Of a stretch of DNA of 39,564 bases, positions 89 through 20,058 are shown in pieces. The notes beneath the pieces are model-generated. The model did no database searches. It saw only the letters and a list, made by a program, of their open reading frames with translations, and was not told the origin of the DNA. The translations under genes were made by a program, and so were the position numbers. Numbering within the stretch: the first letter of the stretch is position 1; the number at the start of each line of letters is the position of its first letter. Source of the DNA: Candidatus Nitrotoga sp. 1052 (GTDB lineage: Bacteria; Pseudomonadota; Gammaproteobacteria; Burkholderiales; Gallionellaceae); assembly GCF_927312905.1 (NCBI RefSeq), contig NZ_CAKMHQ010000062.1:1-39564 (forward strand). The letters are read 5' to 3'.

Positions 89-1981
89 ATGCGCCTGAAA
101 TCAGTTTTCATCAGTCAGTACAAAAATCTCAAGAATTTTTCATTGAATTTCGATGGAGCAAGTTTCATCGATGTCTTTGTCGGGAAAAACGGCAGCGGCA
201 AGTCGAATCTGTTTGAGGCCTTGATCGAGATATTTCGCCACCTCTATGAGTTCGATAACAAGGGGAAAATCGGCTTCGAGTACGCCGTCAAGTATGAAAT
301 CAGTGGAACGGAAACTGAGATAGCCTGGAAAGACGGCAATCTCAGTGTCAATGGTAAAGTACGCAAGGCCATTGGCGACACTCCACTGCCCGACAATGTC
401 CTGATCTACTATTCCGGCCACAACGACACTGTCGCTACGCTGGTGCAGCAATACGAATCGGCCTTCCGTAAGCGCATCAGAAAAGCTGACTTCGATGAAA
501 GTCGTCGCTTCATCGGCATCGGCTCTGAATACAAAGCACTACTGCTGGCGGTGTTGCTGATGCAAAAGGCCGACAACAAGGCGCGGGAGTTTATCTGCAA
601 GAAGCTTGGCATTGACCAACTCGGCATCAGAAAGCCGGGAGGTAAAGAACTTACGGAGGCAGTCGTTAAGCTTGTTCTTGAGCGCCCGGTATATGCAAAC
701 GGCGCAAGATTCGATATCAAAAACAATGATGAGAGCGACCAGTATTGGAGGCCGGAGGGTATTACCAAGACATTTCTCAAACGGTTAACAAAATGCATAG
801 TCCACACTCCAGGAAAAATGACTGTAACCGAGGGTTACTTGGCCTCCGATGATCGCTACATCCTATACTTCAGCATCGCCAAGATTCAACAGGAATTTAC
901 TGATTACAGCGCTCAGGTATTGTTCCGCCAGTTCGACAATCTGAAAACTCTGGGCATGCTGGCCGACATTGCTATTCCCCTCACGCTAACCAGCGGTCTG
1001 GACGCCACCATCGCTCACTTCAGCGACGGCCAGTTTCAGTCGGTCTACATCTACTCCATCGTAGAACTGTTCAAAGACCGCAACTGCCTCACTTTGCTGG
1101 ATGAGCCGGATGCGTTTCTCCATCCAGAATGGCAGTTCGATTTTTTGAGGCAGGTGATTGAGATCACCGATACCGCGAATAACAATCATGTACTTATGAG
1201 CAGCCATAGCGCCGCAACGCTGTGTAGTCTCGATGAGCAGAATATCAGCCTGTTCAAAATTGAAAACTCGGTAGTCTCTTGTTCAAAACGTTCAAAGAAG
1301 GAAGTGATACGGGAGCTATCCGATAGCTTCATTCAGTACTCAGAAGATGAAAGCAAACTGCTAATAGACAATGTGATCCGGTCTTCGCCTAGACCAATAT
1401 TATTTGTTGAGGGCACGTCCGACGTTAGTATCCTGAATACTGCGTACACAAAGCTTTATCCGAATACAGACATCCCAATATTGATTCAAGATGCTTTTGA
1501 TCGCGGTTTTATCAAGGTGTTGCTTGCACGTGATGCACTTTGTAACACTTATCCAGATAAACAATTTTTCGCGTTATTTGATTTTGATGAAGCCTATGAC
1601 GACTGGAGACAATTGGGCGGGGAGCATCAAGTAACGGATATCACGCGTGGCTTGTGCAGAAAACTGCCAGATAAGAATGTTCATTCTTTCATGCTGCCTA
1701 TTCCCAACAACCAGCTAAAGGCGCAGGTTTGGGATGAGACCAATCCTAACGAAAAAATAAAGCCTAAGCCACATTTCTGCGCTGAGCACCTTTTCTGGGG
1801 GGCACAAGGTTTGGATCAATGGTTCAAGACAGATGCTAAAACAGGCCTGATCAAGTTTAAGGGTGACAAACATAAAGTTAAATTTGCCAAGGAGGTCGTG
1901 CCAACACTGGATGTCACCTGCTTTGAGGTGCTGCGTCCAATGTTTGAATTCATCAAATCGAAGTGTCAGTTATCAGTTTAA
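89..1981 (+). CDS. OLD-like AAA ATPase with C-terminal TOPRIM domain
   Basis: Probable ATP-driven nuclease of the overcoming-lysogenization-defect (OLD) type, a group that includes stand-alone phage-defence proteins. The N-terminus (MRLKSVFISQYKNLKNF) is typical of RecF/SMC-like AAA ATPases. Walker A is GKNGSGKS at residues 32-39, a degenerate signature FSDGQ lies near 311-315, Walker B LTLLDEPD is at 334-341, and the H-loop SSH is at 371-373. A TOPRIM-like module follows: ILFVEGTSD (Glu441) and FALFDFDEAYD (the DxD pair near 498-500). About 130 further residues have no recognised domain. The length of 630 aa suits class 1 OLD proteins. No UvrD/GajB-like partner lies downstream, so a Gabija pair is unlikely, although a partner upstream of the window edge cannot be excluded. 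The ATG has only a weak ribosome site. It lies in an accessory-looking patch before greB. The family call is fairly secure; the defence role is inferred. Confidence 0.82.
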   Translation: MRLKSVFISQYKNLKNFSLNFDGASFIDVFVGKNGSGKSNLFEALIEIFRHLYEFDNKGKIGFEYAVKYEISGTETEIAWKDGNLSVNGKVRKAIGDTPLPDNVLIYYSGHNDTVATLVQQYESAFRKRIRKADFDESRRFIGIGSEYKALLLAVLLMQKADNKAREFICKKLGIDQLGIRKPGGKELTEAVVKLVLERPVYANGARFDIKNNDESDQYWRPEGITKTFLKRLTKCIVHTPGKMTVTEGYLASDDRYILYFSIAKIQQEFTDYSAQVLFRQFDNLKTLGMLADIAIPLTLTSGLDATIAHFSDGQFQSVYIYSIVELFKDRNCLTLLDEPDAFLHPEWQFDFLRQVIEITDTANNNHVLMSSHSAATLCSLDEQNISLFKIENSVVSCSKRSKKEVIRELSDSFIQYSEDESKLLIDNVIRSSPRPILFVEGTSDVSILNTAYTKLYPNTDIPILIQDAFDRGFIKVLLARDALCNTYPDKQFFALFDFDEAYDDWRQLGGEHQVTDITRGLCRKLPDKNVHSFMLPIPNNQLKAQVWDETNPNEKIKPKPHFCAEHLFWGAQGLDQWFKTDAKTGLIKFKGDKHKVKFAKEVVPTLDVTCFEVLRPMFEFIKSKCQLSV

Positions 1982-11515: not shown

Positions 11516-12297
11516 TGCAAGCATTTAATAATCCGGTTTTGGAAGCACATAAACTCACGGTAGCAATAGGCGGCAAGATGATATGCCGTGAGCTTGATAT
11601 CGTGATTCGTCCAGGCGAATGTTGGGGTGTATTAGGGCAGAACGGGGTGGGTAAGACCACCTTGCTGCGCACGATGGCCGGTTTGCATACGCCACAAGCT
11701 GGCATGGTGAGTTTGAATGGTGTGGCACTGGCCGCCCATGCTAGACGCAGCCTCGCGCAGCATATGGGGGTGTTGCTGCAAAATGAAGGAGGTGAATTTT
11801 GGGGTAGTGTGCAGGAATATGTATTGCTGGGCCGCTTTCCCCATCGCGCCTCATTGTTCGGTTATAACGCACAGGATGAAGCGCTGGCGCAGCAGGCTTT
11901 GGCGCAGATGGAGTTGGAAGGGCTGGCACAACGACCACACAATTCATTGTCAGGCGGTGAGCGGCAGCGTGTTGCAATTGCCCAGGTGCTGGCGCAGCGG
12001 GCACAGTGCTATTTGCTGGATGAGCCATTACAGCATCTTGACTTGCGCCATCAGGCACAGACGATGCAAGTGTTCAGTCATTTGAAGGAGCAAGGCTGTG
12101 CGCTTATGATGGTGCTGCATGACACTCTTTGGGCGCAACGCTGCTGCGATCATGTGCTGCTGCAGTTTGCCGATGGTCATGCGTTGCATGGTACGGCGCA
12201 AGAGTTGCTGACACGCGCACACCTGGAGGCGCTGTATCAGTGCCCGTTACGCGAGCTGTCCGTGGAGGGAGAACGCTGGTTTGTAGCGGGTGTATAA
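11515..12297 (+). CDS. ABC transporter ATPase, FecE/BtuD type
   Basis: ATPase partner of the permease just upstream. Walker A is GQNGVGKTT (41-49), the Q-loop LLQNEGGEFWGSV, the signature LSGGERQRVAIAQ, Walker B YLLDEPLQHLD and the H-loop MVLHD. The start at 11515 was chosen because it gives a TGATG coupling with the permease stop and a typical N-terminus (PVLEAHKLTVAIGGKMICREL); the frame is open further upstream but only inside the permease gene. The 260 aa are normal for the family. Transport of cobalamin or an iron chelate is inferred from the permease. Confidence 0.92.
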   Translation: MQAFNNPVLEAHKLTVAIGGKMICRELDIVIRPGECWGVLGQNGVGKTTLLRTMAGLHTPQAGMVSLNGVALAAHARRSLAQHMGVLLQNEGGEFWGSVQEYVLLGRFPHRASLFGYNAQDEALAQQALAQMELEGLAQRPHNSLSGGERQRVAIAQVLAQRAQCYLLDEPLQHLDLRHQAQTMQVFSHLKEQGCALMMVLHDTLWAQRCCDHVLLQFADGHALHGTAQELLTRAHLEALYQCPLRELSVEGERWFVAGV

Positions 12298-15773: not shown

Positions 15774-16610
15774 ATGCTAGTGATTCACACCATTGTCGAA
15801 CTGCGCGCACGTTTGCAAGGTGTAACTGGCATCGCCTTGGTGCCGACCATGGGCAATCTGCACCAGGGGCACCTTGATCTGGTGCGGATTGCGCGCCAGC
15901 ATGGTCAGTTTGTGGTGGTAAGCATATTTGTCAATCCGCTACAGTTTGGCATGAACGAGGATTATTCCAAATACCCGCGAACACTCGAGCAGGATTGCAA
16001 AATGCTGGAACAGTGCGGGGTGGATATGGTATTTGCGCCGAGCGAGCGTGATTTATATCCGCAGCCGCAGCAAGTGACAGTGGATTTACCGCCCATCGCC
16101 AATGAGTTATGCGGTGCTTTCCGTCCCGGTCATTTTCGCGGTGCGGCGACGGTGGTGCTGAAACTGTTCAATATTGTACAGCCGCGCATCGCGGTATTCG
16201 GCAAGAAGGATTATCAACAGTTGTATTTAATACGCCAAATGACGGCACAATTGAATCTGCCAGTAGAGATTATCGGCGGCGAAACTGTGCGTGCATCGGA
16301 TGGCCTGGCGCTGAGTTCGCGCAATCAATATTTGAACGTTGCGGAGCGAACTGAAGCGGTTTTTCTATATCAAAACCTTGTTGGAATTCGTCTGGCCATT
16401 ATGGATGGTGCGACGGATTTCTTTAAACTGGAACGACAAGCTATCGAAGTGCTTACCGCGCGTGGCTGGCAGGTCGATTACGTGACGATACGCGCTCAGT
16501 CCAACTTGGCTGAGCCAACAGAGAGCGAGTGTAATCTGGTCATATTGGCTGCGGCTAGGCTAGGGCAAACCCGACTTATAGACAATCTGGAGGTCTTAAG
16601 AGAGTGGTGA
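15774..16610 (+). CDS. panC: Pantothenate synthetase
   Basis: ATP-dependent condensation of pantoate and beta-alanine to pantothenate. VPTMGNLHQGHLDLVRIA carries the HxGH nucleotide motif (His30 and His33, with Gln in place of the usual Glu between them). FVNPLQFGMNEDYSKYPRTLEQD, RPGHFRGAATVVLKLFNIVQPRIAVFGKKDYQQL and GLALSSRNQYLN (KMSKS-like loop) follow. The ATG at 15774 is preferred over the in-frame TTG just before it, with AAGGGG five bases upstream. The 278 aa are standard. It is co-transcribed with panB; panD lies 226 bases on, with its own promoter. Confidence 0.96.
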   Translation: MLVIHTIVELRARLQGVTGIALVPTMGNLHQGHLDLVRIARQHGQFVVVSIFVNPLQFGMNEDYSKYPRTLEQDCKMLEQCGVDMVFAPSERDLYPQPQQVTVDLPPIANELCGAFRPGHFRGAATVVLKLFNIVQPRIAVFGKKDYQQLYLIRQMTAQLNLPVEIIGGETVRASDGLALSSRNQYLNVAERTEAVFLYQNLVGIRLAIMDGATDFFKLERQAIEVLTARGWQVDYVTIRAQSNLAEPTESECNLVILAAARLGQTRLIDNLEVLREW

Positions 16611-16774
16611 TTGGGTTGCCATTATTATCAATTCAAAATTTTAAAGTAAGATAAGGCGTGCAGAGATTTAATCAGACAAGCCACAAACGAAGGTCCGCAA
16701 GAAATTTGAATATACCGAATGGTCGAATACATAAATAATAGAACTTCATGGGTGAAACAGTATTGGGACGAAAT

Positions 16775-16803
16775 TTGGATTTACAGAGGCGGCCTTATAT
16801 AAT
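16775..16803 (+). promoter_or_regulatory. Sigma70-type promoter of panD
   Basis: TTGGAT (16775-16780) and a perfect TATAAT (16798-16803) are separated by exactly 17 bases. The predicted start is near 16810, giving a leader of about 27 bases with an AGGGGG ribosome site seven bases before the panD ATG. The rest of the 226-base panC-panD gap shows nothing recognisable. Confidence 0.65.
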
Positions 16804-16836
16804 GCCTGCCCTTGTTCTCCCGTAGGGGGTAACGCA

Positions 16837-17217
16837 ATGCAAAGAACTATGCTCAAAGCCAAATTGCATCGAGTGCATGTGACGCATTCGGAATTGCATT
16901 ATGAAGGCTCGTGTGCGATCGATGAGGATTTATTGGATGCCGCTGATATCCGTGAATACCAGCAGATCGATATTTATAACGTCACCAATGGTGAACGTTT
17001 CACCACTTATGCCATCCGCGCACAACGCGGTTCCGGCGTCATTTCGGTGAATGGCGCAGCGGCGCATAAGGCCAATCCAGGCGACATTCTAATCATCGCC
17101 ACTTACGCAATGTATACCGAACTGGAGTTGCAGAAATTTCATCCCCAACTGGTGTACGTGGATGGGCGCAACCGTATTATTGCCCAGCGCGATGAAATTT
17201 CAGTTCAGGCAGCGTAG
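16837..17217 (+). CDS. panD: Aspartate 1-decarboxylase (pyruvoyl-dependent)
   Basis: Decarboxylates L-aspartate to beta-alanine, the second substrate of PanC. It is made as a proenzyme that cleaves itself at Gly24-Ser25 in [10 protein letters not shown], leaving a pyruvoyl group on Ser25. The surrounding [50 protein letters not shown] and the 126-aa length are typical, so this copy looks functional. The start at MQRTMLKAK aligns with the E. coli protein so that the cleavage site falls at residues 24/25. Its 3' end is duplicated twice downstream, and it may be a chimera whose 3' part and following genes came from another lineage. Confidence 0.96.
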
Positions 17218-17274
17218 CCAATTCTCTGGTTGGCCTTGGAATAAATCGAGTCTGAGCCTATAGATTTTCCGACC
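17163..17274 (+). repeat. panD 3'-end repeat, copy T1 (native)
   Basis: The last 55 bases of panD plus about 57 bases beyond the stop (CCAATT...TTGGAATAAAT...TATAGATTTT). Copy T2 at 17892-17998 matches it through both the coding tail and this untranslated part. It ends just before the start of the 202-aa cassette gene. Confidence 0.8.
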
Positions 17275-17276
17275 CA

Positions 17277-17885
17277 ATGAAACCAATCCTCCTCGCCGTC
17301 ATGCTTCTCTTCACCACCCTGAACGCGTCTGCGCTCAAGGTAAAAATCACCGCAGCAACGGAAGGTGCAGACAAGCCCGCCGTTGTCGGAACGACCAATC
17401 TGCCAGACGGAATTGAATTGATGGTCACGCTTCGGCGCAAGGAGAGTGCCTTCATGGCCCAAGACAAGGCCAAAGTGACTCAGGGCAAGTTTCGTGCGGG
17501 ACCTTTTTCACAGAAAGGTGTGCCCTTGAATCCGGGAATCTATTCCATCTCTGTGAGCATGCCAATTGCCTCAATGCAGCCGCCAGCAACGTGGCCGACT
17601 ATTGGAAACGACGGAGACAAACTCGAAGGTCCGCTAACGAAGAAGTCCAGTTTTGGTGGGCGTGTCGCCGAATACAGTACAACTTTCAAGATCGGCGACG
17701 GAAAGGCATCTGGGAGTCAGGACAATGCGGCTCGTGCACAGTCAGAGAAGGACAAACACGCCTGGTGGCTGCAGTCGTGCAAGGACATATGCAAGCTTGC
17801 GCAAGGAATGGCCTCGAAGAAGGGCGCAGCATTTGACTTTGATCGCTGCTATTACAAGTGCGTTGCTGATGAAGGCAAGAAATAG
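17277..17885 (+). CDS. Secreted protein of unknown function with twin CX3C motifs
   Basis: Not recognised as a known family. Residues 1-19 (MKPILLAVMLLFTTLNASA) are a clear signal peptide, so the product is exported. The body (20-140) looks beta-rich (LKVKITAATEGADKPAVVGTTNLPDGIELMVTLRRKE, then VPLNPGIYSISVSMP), perhaps an immunoglobulin-like or lipocalin-like fold. The C-terminus is helical and carries C168-KDI-C172 and C191-YYK-C195, two CX3C pairs 18 residues apart, suggesting a disulfide-linked helical hairpin. It sits between two copies of the panD 3' end, 59 bases after panD and 6 bases before repeat T2, as if carried in as a cassette. No operon partner is visible. Confidence 0.72.
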   Translation: MKPILLAVMLLFTTLNASALKVKITAATEGADKPAVVGTTNLPDGIELMVTLRRKESAFMAQDKAKVTQGKFRAGPFSQKGVPLNPGIYSISVSMPIASMQPPATWPTIGNDGDKLEGPLTKKSSFGGRVAEYSTTFKIGDGKASGSQDNAARAQSEKDKHAWWLQSCKDICKLAQGMASKKGAAFDFDRCYYKCVADEGKK

Positions 17886-17891
17886 CGCGGT

Positions 17892-17998
17892 TGGGCACAA
17901 CCGTATAATTGCCCAGCGAGATAAAATTTCAGTACGGTCAGCGTATCCAATCATATGATTATATTGGAATAAATAGAGTATTATAGATTTTTCTCAAC
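17892..17998 (+). repeat. panD 3'-end repeat, copy T2 (decayed)
   Basis: Aligns without gaps to panD bases 17163-17217 (offset 729) with 8 differences in 55, including loss of the stop (TAG to TAT), and then continues into the panD 3' flank (CCAAT, TTGGAATAAAT, TATAGATTTT). It shares the variant GCGAGATAAAATTTCAGTAC with copy T3 and not with the intact gene. It begins at panD codon 109, directly after the 202-aa gene. Confidence 0.85.
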
Positions 17999-18013
17999 GT
18001 CGTTAGGCCGCAG

Positions 18014-18796
18014 ATGACCAATGCTTCCGCACCCCCACCACCTAAAACAGCCGGGTTCCACATCACTCGTGGGGTAGCACTTCGAATCCCTGTAGGTGGA
18101 CTCACTCTCACCCTCGACGACGACGGTGAAGCAAAGATGGAGTTGAAGGGACTACTCTTGCGCCTCGACACATCGGTCCACTGGCTTGAAATCGCAACTG
18201 ACCATCTGGCGCAAGCAAAGACCGCGCATGAGTCAATGGCCGCCGCGCATGCTGACGGCAAGGGCACGGGAGACCTGCTTCAGTCAACATTCAAAGCAGC
18301 AATGCAGGCAATTGTGGCAGGCGCGACATTCTTTGAAGCCCTGTACGCGGCGTCAAGGGACTGCATGCCTCCGGGCAGGCTAGCGCCACGAGCTTCGGAT
18401 CGCTCTGGAGCTAAACGATCGGCCCTGGTTACTGAACAACTGAAGAGGTCGTTTGGGCTCAAGCCAAGGAAGATGGCTGACCTGGCTAGCGTCTTGTCCG
18501 AGGTCTACCGATTTCGCGATGAAGCAGTGCACCCTTCATCGTCCTTCGGCACACCGGCGGTCCATCCCATGCTTGGTGTAATGGTCGAAAGGCGCTTTGC
18601 AATGTACACCTACCCAAATGCGCAACTGCTCGTCCGCGCTGCACTAGCCTACTGCAAGATTCTTCCGACCATTGGGAAGAAGGACGGTCCGAAAGAAATA
18701 CAGGAGCTTGCCCAATACCTGCTTACTGCTGGTGAGCCGCACTTTAACCTATGGGACAAAACGTATGGCCCGCTGCTCGATGCGACTGCGGCCTAG
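18014..18796 (+). CDS. Unknown protein with HEPN-like RX4H motif
   Basis: Not recognised as a named family. The 260 aa have no signal peptide or membrane helix. An N-terminal beta-like section (FHITRGVALRIPVGGLTLTLDDDGEAKMELKGLLLRLDT, 15-53) is followed by long helices. MADLASVLSEVYRFRDEAVHPSS (154-176) contains R168-DEAV-H173, an RX4H motif in a helix, as in HEPN RNases and HEPN-like helical bundles. This supports a possible RNase or nucleotide-related role but does not prove it. The gene follows panD repeat T2 by 15 bases, and its base composition is richer in G+C than the neighbouring envelope genes. GGGTCTGAC occurs 10 bases after its stop. Probably horizontally acquired together with the T2 segment. 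Confidence 0.7.
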   Translation: MTNASAPPPPKTAGFHITRGVALRIPVGGLTLTLDDDGEAKMELKGLLLRLDTSVHWLEIATDHLAQAKTAHESMAAAHADGKGTGDLLQSTFKAAMQAIVAGATFFEALYAASRDCMPPGRLAPRASDRSGAKRSALVTEQLKRSFGLKPRKMADLASVLSEVYRFRDEAVHPSSSFGTPAVHPMLGVMVERRFAMYTYPNAQLLVRAALAYCKILPTIGKKDGPKEIQELAQYLLTAGEPHFNLWDKTYGPLLDATAA

Positions 18797-18862
18797 CAAT
18801 CAATAGGGTCTGACTTGATGAAATAAAGCGGCCTGACATCGGCACGCGACGCCCAGCGCAAA

Positions 18863-19199
18863 TTAATCGATCAATTCAATCGCCAAGTTATCCGCCCACA
18901 GCGTTCCACCATCTTCCAGCATCACGCCAGCTATTAGAGAATAGGCAGAAGGCGGGATTTTGAGTTCGATGGAGTAACGCTTCCAGTCTTGCGTGCCTTT
19001 CACGCGGTCATTTTGCATGAAATTCCAGGCCAGGATTTGGCCACTTCCGTCATCTGCACGAAGGACGAGTGCGCCGCCAGCTCCGTTGATGTCCACGCCT
19101 CTAAGCGAGCCAGAAAGCCGCGCTGTCTTGTTGTGCCATGAGGGATGGACGGCGATCGATTGTTGGAGCAAACCAAAAGGTTCAGAGCCATGGCGCCTG
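18863..19199 (-). pseudogene. 5'-truncated gene fragment, C-terminal beta domain
   Basis: The reverse strand encodes a coherent C-terminal domain: [84 protein letters not shown], ending in TAA. The DW-x-RYSIEL...GGTLWADNLAIE pattern resembles the carbohydrate-binding-like beta-sandwich found at the C-termini of various bacterial enzymes and regulators. Upstream of 19199 the frame runs antisense through panD repeat T3 and is no longer homologous-looking, so the 5' part was lost exactly at the junction. The frame stays nominally open to 19288, so an annotator may call a 141-aa protein, but that start is spurious. Confidence 0.6.
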
Positions 19200-19403
19200 A
19201 TTCGCGCACAACGAGGTTCCGGCGTCATCTCGGTGAATGGCGCAGCGGCGCATAAGGCCAATCCAGGCGATATCCTAATCATCGCCACTTACGCAATGTA
19301 TACCGAGCTGGAGTTGCAGAAATTCCATCCTCAACTAGTGTATGTGGATGAACGTAACCGTATTATTGCCCAGCGAGATAAAATTTCAGTACAAGCAGCG
19401 TAG
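19200..19403 (+). pseudogene. panD: Duplicate panD 3' end (codons 60-126), copy T3
   Basis: Aligns without gaps to panD 17014-17217 (offset 2186) with about 17 differences in 204 bases, and ends with the same TAG. Only two of 67 encoded residues differ (Gly to Glu near 109 and Glu to Lys near 121); the rest are synonymous. It lacks the N-terminal part and the Gly-Ser cleavage site, so it cannot make an active enzyme. An open frame runs into it from 18993, but that upstream part is antisense to the truncated gene and is accidental. After the stop its flank (TTAATCC...) differs from that of T1 and T2 and may be the original panD flank. Confidence 0.9.
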
Positions 19404-19743
19404 TTAATCCTTCTAAGTAGTCTTGTTTCTTCTCAGTCCCACAGTTGCTGCTCTGTATGCGACAGTAAGCTAGCTATGTGGGGCTCGCTTTCCACTACGT
19501 CGGCCACCTATAAGAGCATCGTCAATCTTGATCAGATCTTGCAGGCGATAGAGGCTGCGCCCTAAAAATCGCTTTATCATTATGCGTTTATTGGTCAATA
19601 TGGATTAATTTACAATTATGTTCGCTACCGAACCGACTGTGCTTATTATTAATAATATATTGCAGCTGGTTTCTGAACACTTGGAAATTTTTCAACTACA
19701 TACTATTTAGGTATCTAATTTTTAACATGAAATGGAGTATGAC
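19404..19743. other. 340-bp gap after panD repeat T3
   Basis: No complete gene was found. Positions 19476-19565 read as a short open tail (MWGSLSTTSATY, then NLDQILQAIEAAP and TAA), which could be the decayed 3' end of an old gene; I could not assign it. The A+T-rich part after 19600 probably holds the promoter of the DUF883 gene (CATACT near 19700), with GGAG seven bases before its start. Confidence 0.3.
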
Positions 19744-20058
19744 ATGACTCAATATATTAGCCAGAATTTAAAACATGATTTACTCAAAGATTTTAATGCC
19801 GTTGTAAACGAAGGTGAGCAATTGTTGAAGTCTGTGGTCGATGAAGGTGGTGATAAAGCTAATGCTTTACGCGCAAAGATGGAATCAAATTTGAAGGCAG
19901 CCAAAGATAGGCTGCGCCACATCGAAGAAACTGCAATTGAAACTACCAAGACGGCAGTTCGGGCAACTGACAATTATGTTCATGAAAATCCTTGGCGTGC
20001 CATAGGTGTAGCTGTTGGAATCGGAGCAGTGATTGGGCTGCTTCTGAATCGTCGTTAA
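19744..20058 (+). CDS. DUF883 family membrane-anchored protein (YqjD/ElaB-like)
   Basis: Small inner-membrane protein with a long amphipathic helix (residues ~5-75) and a C-terminal membrane segment, ENPWRAIGVAVGIGAVIGLLLNRR, the hallmark of the DUF883 family. E. coli YqjD and ElaB, which share this tail, associate with ribosomes at the membrane in stationary phase and are RpoS-controlled. The ATG at 19744 is chosen because GGAG lies seven bases upstream; an ATG 12 bases earlier overlaps that site. The 104 aa match the family. It opens the run of envelope and stress genes reaching to 24.9 kb. Confidence 0.88.
   Translation: MTQYISQNLKHDLLKDFNAVVNEGEQLLKSVVDEGGDKANALRAKMESNLKAAKDRLRHIEETAIETTKTAVRATDNYVHENPWRAIGVAVGIGAVIGLLLNRR

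What the first reader, a model, noticed from the sequence alone, without database searches (positions are those of the whole stretch)
16837..19403. Tail-gene-tail-gene-tail array built on the 3' end of panD
The panD 3' end appears three times in the same orientation: in the intact gene, at 17892-17998 (55 coding bases plus flank, 85% identical in the coding part), and at 19200-19403 (204 bases, about 92% identical). The intervals hold an exported 202-aa protein, a 260-aa RX4H protein and a truncated reverse gene. T1 and T2 each run through about 55 bases beyond the stop and end just before a new start codon, so each unit reads as [panD tail + flank][cargo gene]. I know of no described element that uses the panD 3' end this way. 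The panD 3' end appears to act as a landing site where incoming DNA restores the gene and pushes the old tail downstream.
Basis: partly seen in the sequence, partly recalled or inferred. Interest (0 to 1): 0.8.

Follow-up and report, generated by a model that had tools for sequence, protein, structure and literature searches.

The report
Displaced panD tails at recombination hotspot
Two leftover pieces of the end of a housekeeping gene probably mark places where this bacterium took up foreign DNA next to that gene: one end of the incoming DNA matched the gene, the other joined by chance, so the gene stayed whole and its old tail was left behind.

Summary
The three tails are real: the intact panD (16837-17217), T2 (17886-17991, 78-81%) and T3 (19200-19403, 91.7%). 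They do not look like units of a dedicated mobile element. No recombinase was found in the interval's main ORFs, and displaced tails begin at different points of panD (about 61, 204 and, in G014, 151 nt before its end). T3 differs from the intact copy almost only at third codon positions (1/1/15), has sister-lineage states that the intact copy lacks, and is followed by the panD flank of other congeners: most likely the recipient's own, recently functional tail. Its left edge is a 7-bp microhomology joint (CGCGCAC) with the broken 3' end of an unrelated host gene. T2 is decayed (2/4/4). Best reading: one-sided homologous import anchored in panD with illegitimate joining at the far end, as proposed for Rhs and T6SS displacement. 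The panD 3' flank is a hotspot: five genomes share a REP-like flank (degenerate in two), G010 has an attC-bounded cassette, and defence-like genes recur. Extra tails were found in 2 of 18 congeners with panD; 80 related loci outside the genus gave only seven weak matches, which I take as chance. Unusual, but explicable by known processes.

The parts
16837..17217 (+). intact panD; its last part carries states unlike the sister lineages
   Evidence: PF02261 E=3e-49; diagnostic sites
17218..17268 (+). T1 flank, REP-type panD 3' flank; similar flank in G013 and G017, degenerate form in G006 and G010
17249..17266 (+). REP-like motif (GAGTCTGACCCTATT type)
   Evidence: 2 matches in window, 0.02 expected; same motif flanks RAYT genes
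17277..17885 (+). cargo 1, 202-aa protein with a signal-like N-terminus (read by eye), no close relative found
17886..17991 (+). T2: about 61 nt of decayed panD tail plus decayed REP-type flank
   Evidence: differences 2/4/4 by codon position
18002..18008 (+). GTTAGGC, possible integron-type 5' cassette boundary before cargo 2
   Evidence: suggestive only
18014..18796 (+). cargo 2, 260-aa RX4H protein; 52% identical homologue in G197
18791..18797 (+). GCCTAGC, 6 of 7 complementary to GTTAGGC; possible remnant of the cassette's attC (another 6-of-7 match lies 40 nt on)
18798..18815 (-). REP-like motif in inverted orientation, in the 3' flank of gene X
18826..19212 (-). 3' end of host gene X (fragment); another copy on G000 contig C48, 94%
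19203..19209 (.). CGCGCAC, 7-bp microhomology joint between gene X and panD tail
   Evidence: fraction 0.000645 of 200,000 random joints reach 7 bases
19200..19403 (+). T3: displaced, recently functional panD tail (67 codons and stop)
19404..19484 (+). panD 3' flank of the type seen in G005, G007, G009, now behind T3

Best explanation
The array is the scar of successive one-sided acquisitions. Linear DNA from a related cell carried a panD 3' end followed by REP-flanked cargo. It paired with the recipient's panD (homologous anchor; indicated by the mosaic pattern) and at its other end was joined illegitimately inside the same recipient panD at CGCGCAC (the joint is seen in the sequence). The donor restored a complete panD; the recipient's own 3' end remained as T3 with its own flank. 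The incoming piece already held an older, decayed scar of the same kind (T2; inferred). Natural transformation as the route, and selection for an intact panD as the reason why survivors show a restored gene, are inferred.
For: T3 vs intact panD: 17 differences, 1/1/15 by codon position, two amino-acid changes, so T3 belonged to a working allele until recently; T2 shows 2/4/4 and a lost stop. The upstream tree puts G000 with G017/G010/G013 (92/99); at 3 of 3 panD-tail sites diagnostic for those lineages plus G006 the intact copy has the other state and T3 the sister-lineage state; the tail tree puts T3 with G017 (85/86), inside a group with G006, G010, G013 (90/88), and the intact tail outside it. 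T3 is followed by the flank that follows intact panD in G005, G007, G009. The left edge of T3 is a 7-bp microhomology with gene X (fraction 0.000645 of 200,000 random joints reach 7). Tail edges differ: T2, T3, G014. G014 is a second case: decayed tail plus old-type flank on C40, intact panD with another flank on C92. ComEC is present.
Against: No donor was found: at the three sites the intact tail matches none of the four sampled genomes that share its flank type. The tail tree has weak support (one starred fork of 17). The T2 joint cannot be tested because cargo 1 has no relatives among 349 order genomes but its own, and the G014 joint shows no clear microhomology. ComEC is widespread (10 of 14 control genomes), so it says little about competence. 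A circle integrated by a single crossover would give the same sequence.
Confidence: 0.55

Rival explanations
1. A site-specific integrating element uses the panD 3' end as attB, carries a replacement tail, and displaces the old tail as attR, as islands do at tRNA genes and at some housekeeping genes (recalled).
For: The target gene is restored and a displaced tail lies downstream with the native flank. G015 has a decayed tyrosine-recombinase fragment about 1 kb downstream of panD (48 bits, under the family's cut-off; pieces).
Against: No integrase in the three main ORFs of 17218-19199 (smaller ORFs were not scanned). Three displaced tails start at three different panD positions, whereas one integrase would give one core. 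No extra tail in the other 16 of 18 genomes with panD although several have cargo there (short tails in the most distant ones could be missed).
Confidence: 0.1
2. Circular DNA (for example an excised circle holding a panD tail) integrated by a single crossover in panD, giving a partial tandem duplication.
For: Gives the same order [intact panD][cargo][truncated tail + native flank]; the CGCGCAC joint would then be where the circle closed.
Against: Needs a separate circle-forming step; no circle or donor was seen in the calls made.
Confidence: 0.15
3. The tails are within-genome tandem duplications produced by rearrangement between REP-like repeats, followed by decay.
For: REP-like motifs bound the insert in inverted orientation; G006 has a REP-like copy at the far end of its insert.
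Against: T3 differs from panD as another species' allele does (15 of 17 changes at third positions) and has a different flank; a local duplicate would share the flank.
Confidence: 0.12
4. Assembly artefact.
For: Draft genome of 99 contigs; a gene X fragment is duplicated from another contig.
Against: Only one full panD and only one copy of the whole downstream block (DUF883 plus M48) in the genome; the repeats differ by 8-22%, which makes a collapsed or chimeric join unlikely.
Confidence: 0.04

Closest known systems
Displacement arrays of T6SS effector-immunity genes in Vibrio cholerae (Kirchberger 2017, PMC5361080; passages seen) and Rhs C-terminal displacement (Jackson 2009, seen only as cited in those passages)
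   Same: Incoming DNA anchored upstream by homology replaces the 3' part of a gene, the old 3' end and its followers are shifted downstream, repeated events give arrays; homology-facilitated illegitimate recombination is the mechanism those authors propose.
   Different: Here the anchor is a conserved housekeeping gene whose product is nearly unchanged, so the displaced tail has no evident use; the new cargo is unrelated to panD.
Homology-facilitated illegitimate recombination (HFIR) in transformable bacteria (PMC3240628, two passages from abstract and introduction)
   Same: Homologous recombination at one end, illegitimate joining at the other end.
   Different: Inferred here from a natural scar, not observed; competence of this organism is untested.
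REP sequences and RAYTs (NCBIfam NF047646 REP_Tyr_transpos)
   Same: The panD flank, the T2 flank (decayed) and the gene X flank carry the motif that lies on both sides of a resident ~240-aa RAYT.
   Different: The RAYT scores 76.3 bits against a cut-off of 80; no REP/RAYT role in the insertion is shown.
Integron gene cassettes
   Same: G010 has behind panD and its flank GTTAGCT...ORF...AGCTAAC...GTTAGCC (read; attC-like site at +876..938); intI is over cut-off in 12 of 19 genomes.
   Different: In those 12 genomes the intI hits over cut-off are on other contigs than panD; in the window only the ends of cargo 2 suggest a cassette, with one mismatch and no attC; cassette ends in G006 and G013 were not confirmed.

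Membership tests
HFIR-type displacement scar | homology to the recipient on one side only of the acquired DNA | tested here: met
   panD side homologous and mosaic, far side an unrelated gene fragment
HFIR-type displacement scar | illegitimate joint, often with a few bases of microhomology | tested here: met
   CGCGCAC, 7 bp, at T3; T2 not testable, G014 unclear
HFIR-type displacement scar | acquired part is of foreign origin | tested here: inconclusive
   3 of 3 diagnostic sites say yes; tree support weak, flank type and tail states point to different relatives, no donor found
Integrative element targeting a gene 3' end | integrase encoded in the element | tested here: not met
   main ORFs of 17218-19199 by Pfam
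Integrative element targeting a gene 3' end | constant att core at every junction | tested here: not met
   tails start about 61, 204 and 151 nt before the gene end
Integrative element targeting a gene 3' end | element brings a 3' end that restores the gene | tested here: met
   intact panD upstream, displaced tail downstream
Integrative element targeting a gene 3' end | excised circle with attP | not testable with these tools
   no reads
Integron cassette (cargo 2) | 5' GTTRRRY boundary with complementary R'' after the gene and an attC | tested here: inconclusive
   GTTAGGC and GCCTAGC (6 of 7; a second 6-of-7 match 40 nt on), no attC left
Integron cassette (G010 first gene behind panD) | 5' boundary complementary to R'' and a folded attC | tested here: met
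   GTTAGCT / AGCTAAC complementary 7 of 7 (read); attC-like site at +876..938. Controls: strict sites in 1 of 200 shuffled 2-kb pieces, and 3 further strict hits in 307 kb of natural sequence scanned, which I take as false
REP/RAYT | motif flanks the transposase gene | tested here: met
   both sides in L154, L155, L157 (and L148, the same gene as L157), one side in L156 and L168; 34 of the 40 Y1_Tnp loci examined (some genes twice) have none, and I did not test whether these are other types
REP/RAYT | high copy number and a conserved tetranucleotide beside the hairpin (recalled) | not tested
   only few copies per genome with up to two mismatches; tetranucleotide not examined

The most novel reading that the evidence does not exclude
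The panD terminator/REP hairpin is itself a preferred single-stranded substrate for the resident RAYT or the integron integrase, so that the 3' end of a housekeeping gene serves as a recurrent cassette-capture port at which selection for panD always restores the gene and leaves countable tail 'tally marks'.
Probability: 0.07. Interest if true: 0.7.

Novelty: new member of a known kind. Interest (0 to 1): 0.35.

Why it matters
If right, partial gene tails next to intact housekeeping genes can be used as dated scars of one-sided DNA import: the codon-position pattern tells how recently a tail was displaced, and the joint tells how. It also shows a hotspot in an environmental betaproteobacterial genus where REP motifs, integron cassettes and defence-like genes meet.

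Tried and rejected
attC reading of the panD tail itself: a candidate at 17166-17235 exists, but the relaxed scan lists 20 hits over the window including it, so it is noise. Fixed-core integrase model: disfavoured by tail edges. Strict stacking in which T3 is the oldest scar: not favoured because T2 is decayed and T3 is not. Rfam: no match with E up to 1 in 16500-20000. Relatives of the cargoes: none in plasmids for cargo 2, one partial match of 30% for cargo 1; of 349 order genomes, own included, two hold cargo 2 (own and G197) and one holds cargo 1 (own); genome contigs gave nothing for cargo 2. Cargo 2 has no PADLOC match (E up to 0.1) and no NCBIfam match (E up to 0.01), one insignificant Pfam match (E=0.13) and one insignificant PDB match (E=0.81). 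Papers: no described use of panD as such a site was seen in the listings; these searches cover open PMC papers only, show ten papers each, and 'pand' also matches 'pandemic', so they are weak. The other paper searches were seen as listings only.

Full report
What is there. The window is one whole contig (G000:C62) of a 3.23-Mb draft genome. The nearest named records by panD are Gallionella, Ferrigenium and other Gallionellaceae (which may leave out the genome's own records); the genome itself is unnamed. Behind panB, panC (names by my reading) and panD (16837-17217) come, in order: a flank with a REP-like motif (17249-17266), cargo 1 (17277-17885), tail T2 with its own decayed flank (17886-17991), cargo 2 (18014-18796), an inverted REP-like motif (18798-18815), the 3' end of a reverse-strand gene (18826-19212), tail T3 (19200-19403) and a flank that leads into a conserved block (DUF883, M48 peptidase). 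The tails are far beyond chance (E=5e-80 and 6e-18).

The site in relatives. panD was found in 18 of 19 genomes of the genus. In G001, G004, G005 and G007 the panD flank leads into a two-gene stretch (a dapB-like gene, without an open frame in G007, and an MscS-type gene; names by my reading of the translations) and then the block; in G009 the block follows about 400 bp after panD. The sequence behind T3 (19404-19484) is this flank: it aligns in one piece with panD 3' end plus flank of G005 and G007 and, a little less far, G009. G013 and G017 have the REP-type flank that now follows the intact panD of the window, G006 and G010 a degenerate form of it, each with other DNA behind it, apart from some 200 bp that G006 and G010 share; G014, G015 and G016 have yet other neighbours. 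So gene order breaks often at the panD 3' flank.

Which tail is native. T3 and the intact tail differ at 17 of 204 positions, 1/1/15 by codon position: two working alleles, not a gene and an old pseudogene. T2 differs 2/4/4 over 61 coding positions and has lost the stop. For the diagnostic count I used 13 of 19 rows, dropping G002, G008, G011, G012, G018 as too distant, and the G014 tail. Sites at which G006, G010, G013, G017 agree and at most one of eight others shares the state: upstream G000 has their state at 4 of 5; in the panD tail the intact copy has it at 0 of 3 and T3 at 3 of 3; in the flank the intact copy has it at 5 of 6. The upstream tree places G000 with G010, G013, G017 (92/99); the tail tree places T3 with G017 and the intact tail outside that group, with weak support (one starred fork of 17). 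I read T3 as the recipient's tail and the intact 3' end as imported. A tension remains: the imported flank is of the sister-lineage type but the imported tail is not.

The joint. Gene X (the reverse fragment) has matches in 13 other genomes of the genus and a second copy in this one on C48. The window follows gene X up to CGCGCAC and panD from CGCGCAC on (19203-19209). Of 200,000 random joints between the two regions a fraction of 0.000645 reach 7 bases. Gene X's own 3' flank in G013 and G017 carries a like motif, and in G010 it is interrupted by an IS-like end, so the imported DNA probably came from a place where cargo 2 lay beside such motifs.

Mechanism. One homologous crossover in panD upstream of 17139 and one illegitimate joint at 17017-17023 of the recipient's panD give this product without any dedicated recombinase: the donor completes panD, the recipient's remaining 3' end becomes T3. 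Seen in the sequence: mosaic, joint, native flank. Inferred: linear DNA, transformation, selection for intact panD, T2 as an older event already in the donor. ComEC is present but is common (10 of 14 controls). The same geometry has been proposed for T6SS effector-immunity arrays and, as cited there, Rhs tips (PMC5361080, passages), with HFIR defined in PMC3240628 (passages).

REP and integron context. The motif search gave 52 hits with up to two mismatches in 19 genomes against 4 for the reversed pattern, but at least six of the 52 lie in one conserved context that looks coding and are not REPs. The stronger result is that TTAAATCGAGTCTGACCC-like copies lie on both sides of a RAYT in G000, G014 and G015 and on one side in G010. 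intI is over cut-off in 12 of 19 genomes, on other contigs than panD. G010 has an attC-bounded cassette behind panD; the strict attC scan of 307 kb gave three further hits that I take as false, and cassette ends in G006 and G013 were not confirmed. In G006 a TIR/deoxyribosyltransferase-like gene (PADLOC E=7e-11; Pfam 24.6 bits, under the cut-off of 28.8), in G010 DUF1780 and DUF2971 (PDC-S31) genes, and in G013 a 68-aa gene that I read as BrnT (recalled, no family call) follow. Cargo 2 has one homologue among 349 order genomes, in G197 beside a gene that I read as a phage-type integrase (recalled, no family call); its RX4H motif suggests a HEPN-type RNase (recalled), with no database support.

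How general. Extra tails: G000 (two) and G014 (one) of 18 genomes with panD; in the most distant five a short tail could escape the DNA search. Outside the genus I examined the best 80 of at least 585 related loci, 69 of them with at least 2 kb and 51 with about 10 kb downstream: no recognisable displaced tail. Seven loci gave one weak match each: five DNA matches of 29-34 nt (E 9e-4 to 8e-6; two of them at like places in two Dechloromonas) and two protein matches (20 residues on the other strand within panD; 60 residues at 30%, E=0.04), which I take as chance. The phenomenon therefore looks local, not a widespread panD-targeting element.

Noticed in passing
L041 (G000:C48:65000-77485), about 12200-12230: A sequence like a lone type I-E CRISPR repeat (GTGTTCCCCACACCCGTGGGGATGAAC; identity recalled) lies downstream of gene X near the contig end.
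   Followed up: no
L025 (G017 panD flank) and L128 (G010 gene X flank): The same IS-like end (CTGAGGTCTCCCCTCAAAGTTGCAG..., CTGGGG in G010) follows GTCTGACC of the REP-like motif in two different loci of two genomes, as for IS elements that target REPs.
   Followed up: partly
L033 (G015:C32), about 1.0-1.5 kb downstream of panD: Decayed tyrosine-recombinase fragments next to panD.
   Followed up: partly
L026 (G010), 1235-1870 and 265-1005: A DUF1780 gene as integron cassette directly behind panD, and next to it a DUF2971/PDC-S31 candidate defence gene.
   Followed up: partly
L040 and L030 (G014): G014 panD (C92) is apart from its usual downstream block (C40); the displaced tail lies behind a gene that I read as bacterioferritin.
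   Followed up: partly
G000:C67:555-1496 and G000:C85:26872-27813: One intact and one decayed integron integrase; the first lies at a contig end, so an array upstream of it would not be assembled with it.
   Followed up: no
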